NCBI GenBank assembly: GCA_021155855.1
Contig: JAJNAZ010000018.1
Location: forward strand, 1-47,316
Length of the DNA: 47,316 bases
DNA from: Solirubrobacterales bacterium
GTDB lineage: Bacteria; Actinomycetota; Thermoleophilia; Solirubrobacterales; 70-9
Direction: 5' to 3'
Shown one piece after another: positions 19,506-28,158 of this stretch. Position 1 is the first letter of the stretch, and every line of letters begins with the position of its first letter. The notes beneath the pieces were generated by a model. That model had not been told where the DNA came from. It did not search any database and was given only the letters and a program-made list of their open reading frames with translations. A program made the translations under genes and the position numbers.

Positions 19506-19511
19506 AAGCTA
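19506..19511 (-). promoter_or_regulatory. Candidate leaderless -10 for the thioesterase gene
   Basis: TAGCTT on the minus strand, with exactly 8 bases between it and the GTG at 19497. It overlaps the stop codon of the upstream ABC ATPase gene. Confidence 0.4.
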
Positions 19512-20588
19512 ATCGACCGGGGCGGCGGCGGCCGTGGCGTCGCCTTCGCGCGGCAGCACGTCGGTGGGGCCGTCGACCCAGGCGCGCACGTGGTCGCCCG
19601 GGTGCCAGGCGGGGAAGCCGAGCCGGCGCGAGCGGATCGTCTGCCCGGACCTCAGGCGCAGCTCGACGAGCTGGTCGTGGCCGAAGAAGCGGCGGCCGAC
19701 CACCTCGGCGCTCGCGGCGCCCTCCGGGCCGCTGATCCCGATCGCGATCGACTCCGGCCGCACCAGCACGTCGACCGGTCCCTTGACCCCCTGCTCGGCC
19801 GAGAACGACCCCAGCTCGCACTCGACTCGCCCCTCCGCCGCGTCGCCCGGGACCACCTCGATCTCACCGAGGAAGCCGGCGACCCAGCGTGAGGCCGGGC
19901 GCGAGTAGATCTCCTCCGGCGTGCCGAACTGCTCGACCCGTCCCTCGCGCATCACCGCGACCGACTCGGCGATGCTCAGCGCCTCGGCCTGGTCGTGGGT
20001 GACGAACAGGGTGGTCACGCCGGCCCGGGTGAGGATCTCGCGCACCTCCTGGCGAAGGCGGTCCCGAAGCCCGGCGTCGAGGTTGGAGAACGGCTCGTCG
20101 AGCAGGATCAGCTCGGGGGTGGGGGCGAGTGACCTGGCGAGCGCCACGCGCTGCTGCTGGCCGCCGGAGAGCTCGTGCACGGGCCGCTGCGCGTCGGCAT
20201 CGAGCCCGACCAGGTCAAGCACCTCGGCGACGCGGCCCCGATCGGGGCTGCGACCGAGCCCGTAGCCGACGTTGCCGGCGACGTCGAGGTGGGGGAAGAG
20301 CGCGTAGTCCTGGAACACCATCCCGATTCGACGCCGCTCCGGGGCGACGAACTCCCCCGGGCCGTTGAGCGTCCGTTCGCCGATCGCGATCTCGCCCGCG
20401 TCGGGACGCTCGAGACCCGCGATCAGGCGCAGGGTCGTCGTCTTGCCGCAGCCGCTCGGACCGAGCAAGGCGCAGACCGAGCCGGCCTCGACCTCGAGAT
20501 CGAGGCCGTCGACGGCCGCCACCGGGCCATAGGCCTTGGCGAGGCCGTCGAGGCGCAGCGGCGCCGCCGTGGCGGCGGTCGCGGTCAC
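19509..20588 (-). CDS. Ferric-iron-type ABC transporter ATP-binding protein
   Basis: The motor ATPase of the importer encoded by the next two genes. Walker A GPSGCGKT is at residues 43-50, the signature is LSGGQQQR, Walker B is LILLDEP and the switch histidine is in FVTHDQAE. After the nucleotide-binding domain comes a TOBE-like C-terminal domain with LVRPESIAIGISGPEG. It has 359 residues. The GTG at 20588 overlaps the permease stop by 4 bases (GTGA). It resembles FbpC/FutC iron or related anion and thiamine importers; the substrate call rests on the partner lipoprotein and the iron box. Confidence 0.88.
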   Translation of the reverse strand: MTATAATAAPLRLDGLAKAYGPVAAVDGLDLEVEAGSVCALLGPSGCGKTTTLRLIAGLERPDAGEIAIGERTLNGPGEFVAPERRRIGMVFQDYALFPHLDVAGNVGYGLGRSPDRGRVAEVLDLVGLDADAQRPVHELSGGQQQRVALARSLAPTPELILLDEPFSNLDAGLRDRLRQEVREILTRAGVTTLFVTHDQAEALSIAESVAVMREGRVEQFGTPEEIYSRPASRWVAGFLGEIEVVPGDAAEGRVECELGSFSAEQGVKGPVDVLVRPESIAIGISGPEGAASAEVVGRRFFGHDQLVELRLRSGQTIRSRRLGFPAWHPGDHVRAWVDGPTDVLPREGDATAAAAPVD

Positions 20589-22222
20589 GCCGCCACCGCG
20601 CCGCGTTCGGAGAGCAGGTAGAGCGGCGGCGCGGCGATCGCCAGCAGGATCAGCGAGGGAATCGCGCTCGCCTCGTAGAAGCCGAAGCTCGTCTGTGTCC
20701 AGATCTCGGTGGCCAAGGTCTCGAACCCGATTGGGGCCAAGATCAGGGTAGCCGGGAGCTCTTTGACGGCGTGCAGGAAGACGAGGGCCGCGCCGGCGAG
20801 GATGCCGCCGCGCACGAGTGGCACGGTGATCGAGCGAAATACCTGCGTCGGCCCCCTCCCGAGGCCGCGGGCCGCCTCTTCGATCCGGGGGGACACCTGC
20901 GTCAACGAGGTGCCGATCGGCCCGATCGCGAGCGGCAGGTAGTGGACGGTGAGGGCGAAGACGAGCATGATCACGGTCTGGTAGAGCGCCGGCGCGGCGC
21001 GGGTGGCGAAGAAGACCAGCGCCAGCGCGACGACGATTCCCGGAAGCGCGTACCCGGCGTGACCGACTCGCTCGAGCGTGCGCGAGAGCGGCGACGGGAA
21101 CCGTCCCGCGAGAACCGCGATCACCAGCGCGGCGAGGGCGCCGCAGATTGCCGCACCGACTCCGGTCATGAGCGAGTTCGCCGCCAGCCCGCCGGCGAGC
21201 TCGAGCGAGGTCGAGCCGGCGGAGATCCCCTTGCTCGACCAGTAGACGAGCACCGCGACCGGGAGCACCAATGCGATCAGGGCCAGCAAGCCGCAGCCCG
21301 CTAGCGCCGGCCAGCGCCAGCGACCGAGCGCGTAGGCGCGGGGCGGGCGGGCGGTGCCAGGGCCGAGCCGGTGCAGGGCGCGCGCGTGGCGGATGCGCGA
21401 GTTGAGCCACAGCGCGAGCAGCATCAGGACCACGAGCACCGCGCCGAGGCCGGCCGCTGCGGTGCGGTCGAAGCTCGACTTGTAGGTGAGGTAGATCTCA
21501 TTGGTGAAGGCGTCGAAGCGCATGATCGAGACGGCGCCGAAGTCGCTGATCACATATAGGGCGACGAGCAGGCCGCCCACCGCGAGCGCAGGCCACAGCT
21601 GCGGCATGACGACCGAGCGGAAGGTCGCCAGCGGGGTGCGGCCCATCGCGCGCGCGGCGTCCTCGAGCTGCGGATCGAGGCGGCGCAGGGTGGAGCGCAC
21701 CGGGAGCAGGACCAGCGGGTAGGTGAACAGGCTGAGCACGAGCCAGGCGCCGGGGAAGCCGTAGATCGAGGGCAGCCGCTCGACACCGAGCAGGTCCTGG
21801 AGGATTCCGTTCGGCCCCAGGGCGGCGACGAACAGGTAGGCGCCGACGTAACTGGGGATCACCAGCGGCAGGGTGAGCAGCGTCGCCCACAGGCGCCGCC
21901 CGGGGAGGTCGGTGCGCACGGTGAGCCAGCCGATCGGCAGCGCGATCGCGATCGCGGTGGCGGTGACGGCGGCGGCGAGGCCGAGGGTGCGAGCAACCAG
22001 CAGGGCCGTATCGGCGTCGAAGGCGACCTCGAGGGCCGGCCCGAGGTCGCCGGCGACCACGATCAGCAGATAGGCGGCGGGGAGCATCGCGGCGGCCCCG
22101 ACGACGATCCCGGCGGCGAGCAGCGCCACCGGCGGTCGCCGCTCGGAGAGCAGCCAGGGAAGCCCGAGCCCACCCATCCGGGGCTCGGCTCGGACCGTCT
22201 CGCCGGTGCCCGGAGGCGTCAT
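20585..22222 (-). CDS. Ferric-iron-type ABC transporter permease, two fused domains
   Basis: A 545-residue membrane protein with about 12 hydrophobic segments in two homologous halves, as in FbpB-type permeases. Each half has an EAA loop that docks the ATPase: EDAARAMGRTPLATF in the first half and EEAARGLGRGPTQVF in the second. The ATG at 22222 shares a base with the stop of the binding-protein gene, and the stop overlaps the ATPase start. It would carry the ligand released by the binding protein across the cytoplasmic membrane. Confidence 0.88.
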   Translation of the reverse strand: MTPPGTGETVRAEPRMGGLGLPWLLSERRPPVALLAAGIVVGAAAMLPAAYLLIVVAGDLGPALEVAFDADTALLVARTLGLAAAVTATAIAIALPIGWLTVRTDLPGRRLWATLLTLPLVIPSYVGAYLFVAALGPNGILQDLLGVERLPSIYGFPGAWLVLSLFTYPLVLLPVRSTLRRLDPQLEDAARAMGRTPLATFRSVVMPQLWPALAVGGLLVALYVISDFGAVSIMRFDAFTNEIYLTYKSSFDRTAAAGLGAVLVVLMLLALWLNSRIRHARALHRLGPGTARPPRAYALGRWRWPALAGCGLLALIALVLPVAVLVYWSSKGISAGSTSLELAGGLAANSLMTGVGAAICGALAALVIAVLAGRFPSPLSRTLERVGHAGYALPGIVVALALVFFATRAAPALYQTVIMLVFALTVHYLPLAIGPIGTSLTQVSPRIEEAARGLGRGPTQVFRSITVPLVRGGILAGAALVFLHAVKELPATLILAPIGFETLATEIWTQTSFGFYEASAIPSLILLAIAAPPLYLLSERGAVAA

Positions 22223-23259
22223 CACAGCGCCCCCGCCTCCTGCATCAGCTCGACCGTCGCCTGGACCTCGGCGATGTCGTTGAGGTCTCCGCGCGGCACC
22301 GGGATCGCGGCCAGCGCCACGCTTAGCGACGGGTCGGGCTCGACCCCGCGGGCGAGCGGGTACTCCTTCGAGCTGGCGCTGAAGTAGCGCTGGCTCTCGG
22401 GCGCAAGCAGCGAGCGGATGAAGTCGAACGCCTCGTCCTTGCGGTCGCTCGACTCGAGCACCCCGGCGCTGGTCAGCAGCAGGAGCGACCCGAGGCCCTC
22501 GGGGGGGAAGTAGACACCGACCGGGTACTCGGGCCCCTCGGCGGCGATCGCCTGGGCGACGTAGTAGTGGTTGAGCAGGCCGACGTCGACCTCCTCGTTG
22601 GCGATCGCGTCGCGGATCGCGACGTTGTTCGGGTAGTCGACCGCCTCGTTGGCGACCATGCCCTCGACCCACTCGCGCGCGACCTCGTCGCCGTATTCGA
22701 GCCGCAGCGCGGTGACGTACTGCTGCAGCGAGTCGGTCACCGGCGCCCACCCGACCCTGCCCTCCCACTCGGGGTCGGTGAGCTTCAGCGGCGAGTCGGG
22801 AAGCTCCGACCGCTCTGTCGCCTCGCCGTAGGCGAGGGTGCGGGCTCGGCCCGTGATCCCGATCCAGCGGCCCTCGGGGTCGCGGAACCGGGCCGGGACG
22901 CGGTCGAGGATGTCCGCCGGCAGCTCCGCCAGCAGGGCCCGCTCGGCGACGGCGCCGATCGCCCCCGGCTCCTGGGCGAAGAAGACGTCCGCGGGGGAGT
23001 TCGACCCCTCCTCGACCAGGGTGGCGGCGAGGTCACCGGTCTCGGCGAAGCGAACCTGCACGTCGCGGTCGGCGGCGGCCTCGTAGATGTCGACCGCGCC
23101 GCCGATCGCGGCGGCGATCCGCCCCGAGTAGAGCGTGATCCCCTCCGTCTCGGGCTCCGGCGGCCCGCCCCCGGAGTCTTCGGAGGTCGCGCTGCAGGCA
23201 GCCACGACGAGGCTCGCGAGGGCGAGCAGCGTTGTCATTCCTAGTCGCACAGTCGGCAT
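22222..23259 (-). CDS. Ferric-iron-type ABC substrate-binding lipoprotein
   Basis: A 345-residue periplasmic-type binding protein anchored as a lipoprotein. A hydrophobic signal ends in a lipobox at VAAC with Cys22, followed by a Ser/Gly/Pro/Glu-rich linker. The mature part opens with ITLYSGR, and NHYY near residue 229 resembles the tyrosine pair that binds Fe3+ in FbpA/FutA proteins. The ATG at 23259 is 7 codons before an alternative ATG at 23238. The start codon overlaps an iron box. It is the first gene of a three-gene importer operon transcribed leftward. Confidence 0.87.
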   Translation of the reverse strand: MPTVRLGMTTLLALASLVVAACSATSEDSGGGPPEPETEGITLYSGRIAAAIGGAVDIYEAAADRDVQVRFAETGDLAATLVEEGSNSPADVFFAQEPGAIGAVAERALLAELPADILDRVPARFRDPEGRWIGITGRARTLAYGEATERSELPDSPLKLTDPEWEGRVGWAPVTDSLQQYVTALRLEYGDEVAREWVEGMVANEAVDYPNNVAIRDAIANEEVDVGLLNHYYVAQAIAAEGPEYPVGVYFPPEGLGSLLLLTSAGVLESSDRKDEAFDFIRSLLAPESQRYFSASSKEYPLARGVEPDPSLSVALAAIPVPRGDLNDIAEVQATVELMQEAGAL

Positions 23260-23277
23260 TAGGGAAGCCTAATCTTA
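23259..23277. promoter_or_regulatory. DtxR/IdeR-type iron box in a divergent promoter
   Basis: The 19 bases TTAGGGAAGCCTAATCTTA match 17 of 19 positions of the IdeR/DtxR consensus TWAGGTWAGSCTWACCTWA. The site overlaps the start codon of the leftward iron-importer operon. It also covers TAATCT (23270-23275), which lies 8 bases before the ATG of the rightward gene at 23284, and TAGGCT on the minus strand, 6 bases before the importer ATG. A repressor bound with Fe2+ would therefore block both leaderless promoters. Confidence 0.8.
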
Positions 23278-23283
23278 GGGTCC

Positions 23284-24714
23284 ATGCCCTCGCCCCGCCT
23301 CGCCGTGTCGCTGCTCGTCGCTGCCCTCGCCGCGCTCTCGCTGCTGCTGCCCTTCGCGCTCGTCTACGACCCCTGGGCGTGGCTGGTCTGGGGCCGCGAG
23401 ATCACCGGACTCGAGCTCGATACCGGGTCCGGCCCGTCGTGGAAGCCGTTGCCGGTGATCGCCACCACCCTCGCGGCCCCGGCCGGCGGGGCCGCGCCCG
23501 AGCTCTGGACGCTGCTCGCGCGGGCCGGATGGCTGGCGTCCGTGGCCCTCGCTTGGGCGCTGGCGGCGAGGCTCGTGATCCCCCCGGGACTGAGCATGCG
23601 GGCCGCCGCGCGGCTCGCGCCGGCGCGAATCCGCCGCGCGCGGATCGCGGCCGGGGCGCTGGCCGCGGCGGGCGTCCTGCTCCTCCACGACCCGTTCACC
23701 CCGTGGGTGCGGCAGTTCGCCGGCGGGCTCTCGGAGCCGCTGCTGGTCGCGCTCGCGCTCGGCGCGGTCGAGCGCCAGCTTGCGGCCCGGCCCGGGCAGG
23801 CGTTCGCGCTCGGCGTCGGCGCGGCGCTCCTGCGCCCGGAGGCGTGGCCGCTGTTGGCCGTCTACGGGTACGTTCTCTGGCGGCGGCATCCCGGGCTGCG
23901 GGTCGGGCTCGCCGCCGGCGCCCTCGCCGTGCCGCTGCTTTGGCTCGGCCCCGACCTGATCGGATCAGGCGACCCCCTCACGGGCGCCAGGCGAGCGCGC
24001 GAGGCGACCGGCACGGCTCCCGCCGAGGCCCTGGAGGCGATCGGACGGGCGCTCAACCTGGTCCTCGCGGGGCTCTGGGCGGCGGCCGCCTACGCGGGCT
24101 GCACCGCCTGGCGCGCCCGCGAGCGCCCGATCGTCGTCCTCGCCGCGGGCGCGCTCGGCTGGATCGCGATCGTCGCCGCCCTCGCCGCCGCCGGTTACGC
24201 CGGGATCCCCCGCTTCGCGGCGCCGGCGGCGGCGATCGCCTGCGTGCTCGGCGGCGTCGGCGCCGTACGCCTGCTGGCGCTGTGGGGACGCGCGCCGCGG
24301 ATGAGCCCGCGGCGGCGAGCACTGGCGGTCGCCTGCGCGGCGCTCGCCGTCGGGCTGGCGGTGCAGGGGGCGATCCGGGCGGCCGATGTCCCCGGTGACC
24401 TGCGCGGCGCCAACCAGTTTCGGGACGGGGTCGAGGACCTGTTCGCGGTCGTCGCCGGGGCCGGTCGCGAACGCGTCGTAGCCTGCGGAGGGGTGACCAC
24501 CAGCGACTTCCTCACCGAGACGGCCCTGGCGTGGAGGCTCGAGCTCGGCCTCGGCGGGGTCGAGCGCCGAATCGCCTCGGCGCCGGCGGCGGGTACCTCG
24601 TTTCTCGACGCCGACGCCCCGGCGGAGGCCCGGCGCGCGGTGCTCGCAGCCGGCCGCCGGGTCGCGGGCCGGGGGCGGTGGACCGCCTACGAGGTCTTCT
24701 GTGCAAATAATTAG
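23284..24714 (+). CDS. Polytopic membrane protein, GT-C glycosyltransferase-like
   Basis: A 476-residue membrane protein of unproven function. About ten hydrophobic segments fill residues 5-365. After the first comes YDPWAWLVWGREI, an acidic-aromatic loop in the position where GT-C (GT39-like, polyprenyl-phosphate-dependent) enzymes hold their catalytic aspartate. A soluble C-terminal part of about 110 residues follows. Its neighbours (GT2 glycosyltransferase, oxidoreductase, phosphatase-type enzyme) support a role in building an envelope glycan or glycolipid. The start ATG lies 8 bases after TAATCT, suggesting a leaderless transcript controlled by the iron box. A non-enzymatic membrane role is not excluded. 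Confidence 0.8.
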   Translation: MPSPRLAVSLLVAALAALSLLLPFALVYDPWAWLVWGREITGLELDTGSGPSWKPLPVIATTLAAPAGGAAPELWTLLARAGWLASVALAWALAARLVIPPGLSMRAAARLAPARIRRARIAAGALAAAGVLLLHDPFTPWVRQFAGGLSEPLLVALALGAVERQLAARPGQAFALGVGAALLRPEAWPLLAVYGYVLWRRHPGLRVGLAAGALAVPLLWLGPDLIGSGDPLTGARRAREATGTAPAEALEAIGRALNLVLAGLWAAAAYAGCTAWRARERPIVVLAAGALGWIAIVAALAAAGYAGIPRFAAPAAAIACVLGGVGAVRLLALWGRAPRMSPRRRALAVACAALAVGLAVQGAIRAADVPGDLRGANQFRDGVEDLFAVVAGAGRERVVACGGVTTSDFLTETALAWRLELGLGGVERRIASAPAAGTSFLDADAPAEARRAVLAAGRRVAGRGRWTAYEVFCANN

Positions 24715-24724
24715 GTATGCCTAA
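24711..24724. promoter_or_regulatory. Second TTAGG-N4-CCTAA site on the GT2 start codon
   Basis: TTAGGTATGCCTAA is an inverted repeat that overlaps the stop of the preceding gene and contains the ATG (24717) of the glycosyltransferase gene. Extended to ATTAGGTATGCCTAAT it matches 14 of 16 bases of the iron box at 23258-23273. The outer half of the IdeR consensus is not conserved (13 of 19 overall), so binding is less certain than at the first site. Confidence 0.55.
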
Positions 24725-25691
24725 TACCCGACCCAGGCAAGCCCGGCGCGAGAGCACGACCGGCACCGCGCCGACTCTGGCGGCGGTCGTCCCGGCGACC
24801 GATGCCCCGCCGACGCTCGAGCGCTGCGTCGCCGCCCTGCGCGCCTCCAGCTCGCCACCGGACGAGCTCGTGGTGGTGAAGAGCCCACCCGGCGCCGGCC
24901 CAGCAGCGGCGCGAAACGCCGGCGCCGCCGAGGTGAGCGCCGAGGTGATCGCGTTCGTCGACTCGGACGTCGAGGTCCACCGCGACGCGCTCGAACGCGT
25001 CCGGCGAGCGTTCGCCGCCGACCCCCGGCTGGCCGCCGTCTTCGGCAGCTACGACGATCGCCCCGCCGATCCGCGCCCCGTGTCGCGATTTCGCAACCTG
25101 CTCCATCACCACGTCCACACGAGCTCCCCGGGTCCTGCGGAGACCTTCTGGGCGGGGCTCGGGGCGATCCGCCGTGATGTTTTCGCCGCCGCGGGGGGCT
25201 TTGACGCCGAGCGGTTCGGGGAGGCGGCGATCGAGGACATCGAGCTCGGCATGCGCCTGAGCGCCGGCGGGGCCTCGATCGCGCTCGACCCGGAGATCCG
25301 CGGGACCCACCTGAAGAGCTGGTCGCTCGTGGAGATGGTGCGAACCGACCTCCGGCGCCGCGGGATTCCCTGGGTCCGCCTGCAGCTCGAGTCGCGGCGA
25401 GCCTCCGCCGCCCTCAACCTCGGCTGGTGCCATCGGCTCAGCGCGCTCGCCTCGGTGGCCGCGGCGTACGCGGTCGCGCGCCGGCGGCCGCCGGCGCTTG
25501 CCGCCGCCCTCGGCGGCCTGGTAGCGCTGAACGGGCGCTTCTACGCGCTCCTGCGCAGCCAGGGCGGGCTGGCGCTGGCGGCGATCGGCGTCCCGTTGCA
25601 CGTCATCCATCACCTGGTGGCGGTGGCCGCGGTGATCGTCGGCGGCCTCGCCCACGTCCTCGCACCGGCGCGTGCGAGGCGCGCGCCGTGA
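24717..25691 (+). CDS. Family 2 glycosyltransferase with C-terminal membrane segments
   Basis: A 324-residue GT-A fold enzyme. The nucleotide-sugar site has FVDSD with the metal-binding DSD at residues 82-84, and the catalytic-base region has AIEDIELGMRL with ED at 173-174. Hydrophobic segments between about residues 230 and 318 anchor it to the membrane. The acceptor and sugar are unknown. It starts 2 bases after the membrane-protein gene and overlaps the oxidoreductase by 4 bases, so the set is one operon. The start codon lies inside a palindromic operator-like site. Confidence 0.88.
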   Translation: MPNTRPRQARRESTTGTAPTLAAVVPATDAPPTLERCVAALRASSSPPDELVVVKSPPGAGPAAARNAGAAEVSAEVIAFVDSDVEVHRDALERVRRAFAADPRLAAVFGSYDDRPADPRPVSRFRNLLHHHVHTSSPGPAETFWAGLGAIRRDVFAAAGGFDAERFGEAAIEDIELGMRLSAGGASIALDPEIRGTHLKSWSLVEMVRTDLRRRGIPWVRLQLESRRASAALNLGWCHRLSALASVAAAYAVARRRPPALAAALGGLVALNGRFYALLRSQGGLALAAIGVPLHVIHHLVAVAAVIVGGLAHVLAPARARRAP

Positions 25692-26602
25692 GCGGCGGCC
25701 GCGCGCCACTGCGGCTCGGCCTCGTCGGCTGCGGCCGGCTCGCCGAGGCGGGCTATCTGCCCGCAATCGCCGGCGCCGGCGGCGTCGAGCTGGTCGCGGT
25801 CGCAGACCCGCGGGCCGAGCGCCGCGAGCTGGTGGCGCGGTTGGGCGCTCCCGACCCAGGCTCGGGTGCGGTCGCGACCCACGCCGAGGCGGCCACCCTG
25901 CTCGCCGCGGGCGGCCTCGACGCCGTGATCGTCGCCAGCCCGCCCGCCGAGCACGTCGAGCACGCGCGCCTGGCGAGCGAGGCTGGGATCGCCTGCCTGG
26001 TGGAGAAACCGCCGGCGCCGGAGCTGGCGGGGGCCAAGCGGCTGGCCGAGCTTGCCCGGCCGCCGTGGATCGGCTTCAACCGCCGCTTCCAGCACGCGGC
26101 GGCGCTGCTCCGCGCGGTGCCGTCGGAGGGGCCGCTGGAGCTGCTGCTCGAGCTCCACTACCGGCGCGACTCCTGGCGCGCGGTCTCGATCAGAGACGAC
26201 GCGGTCCTCGACCTCGCTCCGCATCTCGTCGACCTGGCGCTGCTGCTCGCCGGCGCGCGGACGGCGACGGTGCGCGTCGCGACCCTGACCTCCGAGCGAG
26301 TCGAGCTCGATCTCGACACCGGCCGCGTGCGGGCGCGGATACGCTGCGCCACCGATCGCGCCCATCGCGAGCTCGTCGTCGTCCGGCATCCGGGCGGGGC
26401 GAGGATCGCGGCCAGCCGGGCGGGCGGCTTCCTGCGCGGGGCGGTGGCGCGGATCCCTGCCGTCGCGCATCCCCTGATCGCCTCGCTCCGGGCCCAGTTG
26501 GGTGCCTTCGCCGCTGTCGCGCGCGGCGCCGAGGGCGGCCTGTTGGCGACGGCCGAGGACGGCGTCCGGGCGATGCGCGTGATCGAGGCGGCCGCGGCTT
26601 GA
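25688..26602 (+). CDS. Gfo/Idh/MocA family oxidoreductase
   Basis: A 304-residue NAD(P)-dependent sugar-type dehydrogenase. The Rossmann motif GLVGCGRLAEAGYLP is at residues 11-25. ACLVEKPPAPE near residue 105 carries the conserved EKP lysine, and LDLAPHLVDLALLL near 178 has the catalytic histidine. The GTG at 25688 lies in a GTGA overlap with the glycosyltransferase gene; further upstream the frame runs through that gene. In this context it probably oxidises or epimerises a sugar destined for the glycan made by the operon, which is inference. Confidence 0.87.
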   Translation: MSGGRAPLRLGLVGCGRLAEAGYLPAIAGAGGVELVAVADPRAERRELVARLGAPDPGSGAVATHAEAATLLAAGGLDAVIVASPPAEHVEHARLASEAGIACLVEKPPAPELAGAKRLAELARPPWIGFNRRFQHAAALLRAVPSEGPLELLLELHYRRDSWRAVSIRDDAVLDLAPHLVDLALLLAGARTATVRVATLTSERVELDLDTGRVRARIRCATDRAHRELVVVRHPGGARIAASRAGGFLRGAVARIPAVAHPLIASLRAQLGAFAAVARGAEGGLLATAEDGVRAMRVIEAAAA

Positions 26603-28158
26603 TCTGCGTGCTGCAGTTCGACGCCGCCGGCGTCGCGGTGCTCGATCGTCTCCTCGCCGAGGGGCGGCTGCCCAATCTGGCTGCGCTGGCCGCGCATGGA
26701 CGTCGGCACGAGCTCGAAACGCCGGCCGTCGACTTCGCCGCGAGCGCCTTTCACACCCTCTACAGCGGCAGCGAGCTCGGCGACCACGGGGTCTTCTACC
26801 CGTTCCAGTGGTCCGCGGGCGAGCAGCGGGCCCGCTACGCGACCGCGTTCGACGGCCCGCCCGCGGTTTGGGAGCGGCTCGCCGCGGCCGGCCTGCGAAC
26901 GCTGGCGATCGATCCATACGAATGCCGTCCGCCGGCGACCGCGAACGGCGTCTTCATCTGCGGCTGGGGGTTCGCCGATCGGGTTGTGCTGCCGCGCTGG
27001 TCGCGTCCCGTGGGCGCCGGGCGGGCGCACGCCCGGCGCCACGGCCGCGGCCCGGAGGCGACCGAGGTCTTCGGCCGCCCGCGCCCGCGCGAGCTCCTGC
27101 GCCTGCGCGAGAAGCTGATTGCCGCGCCGGGCCGGATCGCCGCCCTCGCCGAGGAGCTGCTGGCGCGCGAGCGCTTCGATGCGGCCTGGCTCACCTTCAG
27201 CGCCGCCCACCTCGCCGGCCACCAGTTCTGGGACCTCTCCCAGGTCGACGCGCGGGCGCTCGACCCGAAGTCGCGCCGGGCGCTCGAGGGCGCGCTCGAC
27301 GAGGTCTACGTCGCGGTCGATCGTGCCCTCGGCGGCGTGCTCGCGGCGCTGCCCGCGGGCGCCGAGGTGATCGTCACCTCGGCGGTGGGCATGGACGTCA
27401 ACACCAGCCGCGCCGACCTGCTGCCGGAGATGCTCGCAGCGGTGCTCGCCGGTGGCCCGGTGCAGACGGACGGTTCGGGCGCGATCTGGCGCCTGCGAGC
27501 GGCGATGCCCGCCGGCCTGCGCCGCGCGATCGCCGGCGCGATCCCCGATCGCGCGGCGCTCGAGCTGACCGCGCGGCTCGAGCTGCGGGGGCTCGACTGG
27601 ACCACCACCCGCGCCTTCGCCCATCCCGCCGACAACCAGGGGTACGTGCGCCTCAACCTGCGCGGGCGCGAGCGGCAGGGGATCGTCGACCCGACCGCGG
27701 CGGATGGACTGCTGGACGAGGTCGCCGCCGGGCTCTCGAGTTTCGAGGATCCCGACGGAGCGCCCGCGGTGGCCTCGACCGCGCGTCCCGGAGACCTCTA
27801 CCCCGGCCGGCACGCAGAGCGCCTACCCGACCTCGTCGTGCGCTGGTCCGAGCGTCCGGCGACGAGGCTGACCGAGGTGCGCTCGGCGCACTTCGGCACC
27901 GTTCGCCGCCGCGGCGGCGGCTCGGGCCGTGCCGGCAACCACACCGCCGGCGACGGGTGGGCGATCGTCGTTCCCGCGCGCTCGGCCCATGCCGCGCCCG
28001 TGCGCGCGCCGCGTCTCGTCGACGTCGCTGCCACCGTCTGCGAGCTCGTCGGCGCGGATCGGTCCGAGCTGCCGGGCGAGCCGCTGCTGACGAGCCCGGG
28101 CTCCGAGCCCGCGTCGAGCGAGCTCGGCCGCCGAGTGGCGGCGCCGCCGGGCAGGTGA
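26599..28158 (+). CDS. Alkaline phosphatase superfamily protein (type I phosphodiesterase-like)
   Basis: A 519-residue soluble-looking enzyme. It starts at a TTG that overlaps the preceding stop by 4 bases, giving MICVLQFDAAGVAVLDRLL; the aspartate is the first metal ligand. ASAFHTLYSGSELGDHGVFYP resembles the nucleophile region of nucleotide pyrophosphatase/phosphodiesterase relatives. Further metal-site candidates are GMDVN near residue 265 and the late GNHTAGDGW. No signal peptide is seen, so it acts in the cytoplasm unless exported otherwise. The substrate is unknown; hydrolysis or transfer of a phospho-sugar group would fit the operon. Confidence 0.82.
   Translation: MICVLQFDAAGVAVLDRLLAEGRLPNLAALAAHGRRHELETPAVDFAASAFHTLYSGSELGDHGVFYPFQWSAGEQRARYATAFDGPPAVWERLAAAGLRTLAIDPYECRPPATANGVFICGWGFADRVVLPRWSRPVGAGRAHARRHGRGPEATEVFGRPRPRELLRLREKLIAAPGRIAALAEELLARERFDAAWLTFSAAHLAGHQFWDLSQVDARALDPKSRRALEGALDEVYVAVDRALGGVLAALPAGAEVIVTSAVGMDVNTSRADLLPEMLAAVLAGGPVQTDGSGAIWRLRAAMPAGLRRAIAGAIPDRAALELTARLELRGLDWTTTRAFAHPADNQGYVRLNLRGRERQGIVDPTAADGLLDEVAAGLSSFEDPDGAPAVASTARPGDLYPGRHAERLPDLVVRWSERPATRLTEVRSAHFGTVRRRGGGSGRAGNHTAGDGWAIVVPARSAHAAPVRAPRLVDVAATVCELVGADRSELPGEPLLTSPGSEPASSELGRRVAAPPGR

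What the first reader, a model, noticed from the sequence alone, without database searches (positions are those of the whole stretch)
23284..28158. Uncharacterised four-gene envelope-type pathway tied to iron import
A polytopic GT-C-like protein, a GT2 enzyme, a Gfo/Idh/MocA oxidoreductase and an alkaline-phosphatase-superfamily enzyme are spaced by 2 bases or overlap by 4 (GTGA, TTGA), so they form one operon. They share a divergent, iron-box promoter with an iron importer. Together they could make, modify and release a sugar or phospho-sugar unit at the membrane in response to iron. I know of no named pathway with this exact set.
Basis: partly seen in the sequence, partly recalled or inferred. 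Interest (0 to 1): 0.72.

Follow-up and report, generated by a model that had tools for sequence, protein, structure and literature searches.

The report
Iron-regulated envelope-glycan cassette beside ferric importer
A set of bacterial genes that looks like an assembly line for a surface sugar sits beside a ferric-iron importer, carries its own iron-control switch, and keeps that arrangement across distant actinobacteria, which suggests that these bacteria remodel their surface when iron is scarce.

Summary
Four genes (GT-C-like membrane protein, GT2, Gfo/Idh/MocA, AlkP-fold protein) lie at the stated coordinates, divergent from a true FbpA-type ferric importer. The DtxR/IdeR-type core TTAGG-N4-CCTAA occurs three times in the 2.83 Mb genome; two copies are here. 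One is in the divergent promoter. The set recurs with importer and boxes in Solirubrobacterales, Acidimicrobiales and Pseudonocardiaceae, joined there by a UDP-galactopyranose-mutase-like flavoenzyme, a second GT2 and a flippase, and in Pseudonocardiaceae by an EmbC-like arabinosyltransferase. Two different ferric-binding subclasses fill the importer slot. Clusters without the importer lack boxes. Gene 1 has a GT-C fold. The AlkP-fold protein has lost the catalytic Thr and half of the metal site, so release by a phosphatase is unlikely. Best reading: an iron-starvation-inducible envelope-glycan pathway. Its product and its role in iron supply are not shown. I found no description of it in the papers I could search.

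The parts
19509..20588 (-). FbpC-type ABC ATPase of the ferric importer
   Evidence: 63-74% identical ATPase in the same linkage in Solirubrobacterales loci, about 55-60% in distant loci
20585..22222 (-). FbpB-type fused permease
   Evidence: PF00528 twice, E 6e-22; linked in all loci that carry the importer
22222..23259 (-). FbpA-type ferric-binding lipoprotein
   Evidence: best match solved iron-binding protein 7w3w, E 3e-62; NHYY motif
23259..23272 (.). iron box 1, TTAGGGAAGCCTAA, divergent promoter, touches the fbpA start codon
   Evidence: one of 3 in the genome; conserved in relatives
23284..24714 (+). gene 1 (G1): GT-C-fold membrane glycosyltransferase
   Evidence: AF2 pLDDT 75.9, ArnT Z 19.6, all top rows GT-C; Asp29 invariant in 14 homologs
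24711..24724 (.). iron box 2, TTAGGTATGCCTAA, spans the gene 1 stop and the gene 2 start
   Evidence: the same place carries a box upstream of GT2a in relatives
24717..25691 (+). gene 2 (GT2a): family 2 glycosyltransferase
   Evidence: PF00535; DxD (D82, D84) and E173-D174 invariant in 14 homologs
25688..26602 (+). gene 3 (GFO): Gfo/Idh/MocA oxidoreductase
   Evidence: PF01408; E106-K107-P108 and H179 invariant in 14 homologs
26599..28158 (+). gene 4 (PDE): AlkP-fold protein with a degenerate active site, no signal peptide evident
   Evidence: PF01663 E 2e-12; T to A/P, DH to (A/P/V)(V/L); D8, H204, H208, H448 kept

Best explanation
This is a glycan-assembly cassette that a DtxR/IdeR-type repressor switches on when iron is low, together with the adjacent FbpABC ferric importer. 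Shown by sequence: gene families, boxes, linkage and conservation. Inferred steps: the Gfo/Idh/MocA enzyme (and, in relatives, a UDP-galactopyranose-mutase-like flavoenzyme) prepares a nucleotide sugar; GT2a (and GT2b in relatives) builds it on a membrane lipid at the inner face; a flippase (in the locus in many relatives, absent here) turns it over; the GT-C protein G1 transfers it on the outer face to an envelope acceptor. The AlkP-fold protein is probably a cytosolic sugar-phosphate or lipid-phosphate binding partner, or a one-metal enzyme, not a classical phosphodiesterase. The cell thus changes its surface glycan under iron starvation, most likely in support of ferric uptake.
For: Only 3 perfect boxes in the genome, 2 here. 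A matrix trained on 12 Solirubrobacterales sites finds a site above all 30 shuffles in 13 other loci and above 29 of 30 in a fourteenth (L068); 13 of these 14 carry the importer and L026 is too short to tell; 6 loci without the importer in the sequence held show no such site. 27 of 31 boxes (up to one mismatch) lie in 7% of the sequence, the promoter zones of cluster genes; the other 4 also lie upstream of genes. Importer within the flank in 16 of 18 long loci of the first set and in 3 more of the second. The importer is of two subclasses, FbpA-like here and FutA-like in distant loci, about 30% identical, with the same glycan genes. GT-C fold. UGM-like flavoenzyme, second GT2, flippase and EmbC-like gene in relatives. 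EfeO/EfeB-type and FTR1-type iron genes beside L029 and L032.
Against: No product is known and no expression data exist. Four genomes, this one included, lack the flippase gene in the locus and gave no match elsewhere, though that search had no positive control. Related glycan clusters without importer or box exist (L019, L034, L073-L076), so the glycan itself need not serve iron uptake. Two DtxR-family repressors are present and which one binds is unknown.
Confidence: 0.62

Rival explanations
1. The cassette is a dedicated protein-glycosylation system: G1, a GT-C enzyme of the PMT/ArnT kind, glycosylates the surface iron-binding protein or other iron-uptake proteins expressed with it.
For: Structural neighbours of G1 include protein mannosyltransferases and oligosaccharyltransferases. 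G1 lies directly beside importer genes, downstream of SBP-permease in L015/L016 and of the ATPase in L027/L029.
Against: Two GT2s plus a flippase and, in Pseudonocardiaceae, an EmbC-like enzyme suggest a larger glycan than a single protein O-sugar. A shared fold does not show the acceptor.
Confidence: 0.15
2. The glycan is a general envelope component (for instance a furanose-containing polymer) whose genes merely fell under iron control by sitting beside an iron-regulated importer; it has no part in iron supply.
For: The importer has its own box without the cassette (L096, L097, L099, L100), and the glycan genes occur without importer and box (L019, L034, L073-L076).
Against: The cassette carries a second box of its own at GT2a, kept in distant lineages, and two unrelated ferric-binding subclasses were paired with it.
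Confidence: 0.17
3. The cassette makes or decorates a diffusible siderophore that FbpABC brings in.
For: Iron boxes and importer linkage.
Against: No siderophore synthetase-type gene was seen among the cluster genes or their annotated neighbours, and the importer proteins resemble binders of bare ferric iron.
Confidence: 0.04

Closest known systems
Lipid-linked envelope glycan pathways of Actinomycetota (arabinogalactan: Glf, GlfT, AftA-D, Emb)
   Same: GT2 and a GT-C enzyme structurally near AftA/AftB/AftD/Emb; in relatives a UGM-like flavoenzyme, and an EmbC-like protein in Pseudonocardiaceae loci
   Different: Flavoenzyme is PRK07208-type, nearest to eukaryotic UGM among solved structures; adds a Gfo/Idh/MocA enzyme and a degenerate AlkP-fold protein; iron-box control and FbpABC linkage
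FbpABC/FutABC ferric importers under DtxR/IdeR control
   Same: ferric-binding protein, fused permease, ATPase and DtxR-type box
   Different: a glycan-assembly cassette with its own box is built into the locus
PF01663 type I phosphodiesterase / nucleotide pyrophosphatase family (AlkP superfamily)
   Same: profile match and conserved Asp and His residues
   Different: nucleophile and one metal site lost; no evident signal peptide
ArnT/PMT-type GT-C transferases
   Same: fold of G1
   Different: 13% identity; donor and acceptor unknown

Membership tests
GT-C glycosyltransferases (gene 1) | GT-C multi-helix fold | tested here: met
   AF2 pTM 0.79; top VIA rows all GT-C, ArnT Z 19.6 over 404 residues, rmsd 5.4
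GT-C glycosyltransferases (gene 1) | acidic residue in the first outer loop | tested here: met
   Asp29 invariant in 14 homologs, just after the first helix
GT2 glycosyltransferases (gene 2) | PF00535 match, DxD and ED motifs | tested here: met
Gfo/Idh/MocA oxidoreductases (gene 3) | NAD-binding Rossmann domain, EKP lysine and catalytic-region His | tested here: met
   PF01408 E 4e-16; E106-K107-P108 and H179 invariant
PF01663 phosphodiesterases (gene 4), membership of the fold family | profile match above the curated cut-off | tested here: met
   48.1 bits against cut-off 23
PF01663 phosphodiesterases (gene 4), as active two-metal enzyme | Thr/Ser nucleophile and two complete metal sites | tested here: not met
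   nucleophile position Ala/Pro; Asp-His pair lost; Asp to His at 204
FbpA ferric-binding proteins (P0005) | sequence relation to solved ferric-binding proteins and paired-Tyr iron ligands | tested here: met
   E 3e-62; NHYY conserved; iron binding itself not tested
DtxR/IdeR regulon | box like TTAGGTTAG(G/C)CTAACCTAA and a DtxR-family repressor in the genome | tested here: met
   14-base core exact at both sites; two PF02742 proteins in the genome
DtxR/IdeR regulon | iron-dependent repression | not testable with these tools
   needs expression or binding data
Arabinogalactan-type pathway | UGM and galactofuranosyl/arabinosyl transferases in the locus | tested here: inconclusive
   UGM-like and EmbC-like proteins in relatives, absent from this locus; sugar identity unknown

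The most novel reading that the evidence does not exclude
The cassette makes a surface glycan, possibly with furanose residues, that binds or relays ferric iron to FbpA/FutA: a carbohydrate-based, siderophore-free iron capture system of actinobacteria, with the three-His AlkP-fold protein as a new one-metal or non-catalytic variant.
Probability: 0.15. Interest if true: 0.88.

Novelty: new variant of a known kind. Interest (0 to 1): 0.64.

Why it matters
Iron-starvation responses are usually described as importers and siderophores. Here a conserved glycan-assembly cassette appears to be written into the iron regulon of distant actinobacteria, beside two different ferric importers and sometimes beside EfeUOB-type genes. 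If the glycan aids iron capture, it is a new route of iron acquisition; if not, it is still an unrecognised iron-controlled change of the cell surface. A cultured carrier (Actinomycetospora cinnamomea DSM 45771) makes it testable.

Tried and rejected
One-operon reading: set aside because of box 2 and the intervening flavoenzyme gene in relatives. Active phosphodiesterase: rejected from active-site comparison. AF2 of the AlkP-fold protein from 6 sequences was poor (pLDDT 53), so its Foldseek matches to phosphonoacetate hydrolase are weak support only, and no profile match was found in the PDB. The importer as a phosphonate importer (PhnS2/PhnU2 hits far below cut-off) was rejected by the PDB comparison. 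Where the flavoenzyme went in this genome: the best homolog is at C9:84913 (52%), without a box nearby. The flippase of L013 found nothing in G000, G033, G011 and G004, but without a positive control. Chance neighbourhood: rejected by conservation in three lineages and by the box in the cassette itself. Literature searches for an iron-regulated glycan cassette of this make-up gave nothing relevant; only open-licence papers were searched.

Full report
What is there. The window is contig C40 of a 2.83 Mb, 96% complete genome; most of the named loci closest to it are Solirubrobacteraceae/Solirubrobacterales metagenome genomes. The four ORFs are as reported, with a 2-base gap and two 4-base overlaps. 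Divergent from them lie fbpA-, fbpB- and fbpC-type genes. The binding protein (P0005) matches solved ferric-binding proteins, best E 3e-62, and has an apparent lipobox (VVAAC) and the NHYY motif.

Iron boxes. TTAGGNNNNCCTAA corresponds to the first 14 bases of the DtxR consensus TTAGGTTAG(G/C)CTAACCTAA (PMC1382209). It occurs three times in the genome, and the reversed control does not occur. One copy is in the divergent promoter, touching the fbpA start codon. The third lies about 34 bases upstream of a fatty-acid-hydroxylase gene (L012). In several relatives the second box is a divergent promoter between a flavoenzyme gene and gene 2, again overlapping or abutting start codons. So genes 2-4 are an iron-boxed unit of their own, even if read-through from gene 1 also occurs.

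Conservation. A scan of genome contigs with the family of gene 4 gave 20 loci: 19 of Solirubrobacterales, Acidimicrobiales, Pseudonocardiaceae and other actinobacterial genomes, including Actinomycetospora cinnamomea DSM 45771, and one distant relative in Novosphingobium (lineage). Gene-by-gene comparison shows a shared set: importer, G1, GT2a, GFO, PDE, and in many loci GT2b, a flippase, and a PRK07208-type flavoenzyme related to eukaryotic UDP-galactopyranose mutase. Four loci add an EmbC-like gene. Among 18 long loci the importer is within the flank in 16. Twelve further stretches were fetched: five repeat earlier ones, three new ones (L066-L068) have importer genes, and four (L073-L076) do not. 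In samples of whole genomes the gene 4 family is in 6 of 396 across the phylum and 16 of 399 in the class, so it is widespread but uncommon.

Boxes follow the importer. A matrix built from 12 Solirubrobacterales sites was run on the other loci. The best site beats all 30 shuffles in L020, L022, L023, L025-L029, L032, L033, L035, L066 and L067, and 29 of 30 in L068 (L026 is too short to show an importer; L024, also cut, scores too). In L019, L034 and L073-L076, which have glycan genes but no importer in the sequence held, no site stands out; L074 and L075 are cut by contig ends, so absence there is weaker. Over the first set, 27 of 31 sites with at most one mismatch fall in promoter zones that make up 7% of the sequence; the other four are also upstream of genes (the flavoenzyme/GT2a pair, whose start was misplaced by my gene caller; the Emb/imelysin pair; a gene with a DHOR domain; the epimerase). 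The zones come from my own gene calls, and some of these loci also helped to define the pattern, which are limits; the matrix test was trained on separate loci.

The importer can be swapped. The binding protein here is nearest to 7w3w, that of L029 to 2pt1 (E 7.5e-68); they are about 30% identical while gene 4 is about 60% identical. The same glycan genes beside two ferric-binding subclasses argue for a functional tie. Conversely the importer also occurs without the cassette, with its own box (L096, L097, L099, L100), and in L096 and L098 the binding-protein gene lies next to surE-ligA with none of the cassette genes between: the likely empty site. Among 61 relatives all 6 genomes with the true gene 4 family have the binding protein, against 17 of 55 others (hypergeometric P about 0.002, computed by hand and without correction for kinship).

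Functions. G1: AF2 pLDDT 75.9, pTM 0.79; best matches ArnT (Z 19.6), protein mannosyltransferases, oligosaccharyltransferases, AftA/B/D and Emb, all GT-C; Asp29 is invariant. GT2a and GFO keep their catalytic motifs. Gene 4 matches PF01663 but has Ala or Pro in place of the nucleophile, has lost the Asp-His pair of one metal site, and keeps D8, H204, H208 and H448. It starts directly at the first strand of the fold, so I infer a cytosolic protein. It should not be called a phosphodiesterase.

Interpretation. Shown: families, boxes, linkage, conservation, degenerate AlkP-type site. Inferred: iron-dependent transcription, a lipid-linked glycan, its outer-face transfer by G1. Speculative: that the glycan captures or relays iron. 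The pieces are known kinds; the combination under iron control was not found in the literature that could be searched.

Noticed in passing
G000:C17:8436-8449 (L012 4937-4950): Third perfect iron box of the genome, about 34 bases upstream of a fatty-acid-hydroxylase-family gene (PF04116, L012 4280-4903, minus strand), presumably a di-iron enzyme.
   Followed up: partly
L029 17037-19302; L032 15492-19207: Imelysin (EfeO-like) plus DyP peroxidase (EfeB-like) in L029, and an FTR1 permease plus imelysin in L032, next to the cassette, with box-like sites upstream: an iron-uptake island.
   Followed up: partly
L022, L028, L029, L035: EmbC-like arabinosyltransferase gene beside the flippase (PF04602/PF14896 checked in L028 and L029); in L028 and L029 a box-like site lies at its start.
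   Followed up: partly
L073-L076, L019, L034: Glycan clusters of the same kind without ferric importer and without iron boxes in the sequence held.
   Followed up: partly
L096 3682-5614; L098 6429-8408: Likely empty sites: the ferric-binding-protein gene next to surE-ligA, where the window has the 4.9 kb cassette in between.
   Followed up: yes
window 23259-23284 and 24711-24717: Boxes overlap or abut start codons, as in relatives, which suggests leaderless transcripts with the repressor over the start region.
   Followed up: no
L038 3705-4868: A 28%-identical AlkP-fold relative in a Novosphingobium metagenome genome has Ser at the nucleophile position and also HxxxH, so the His-for-Asp change is wider than the loss of the nucleophile.
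   Followed up: no
L091 4-1387; L092 4073-5832: Contig-end stretches of a same-genus and a same-family genome show box and G1 beside the importer, so the cassette is probably there too but cut off.
   Followed up: no
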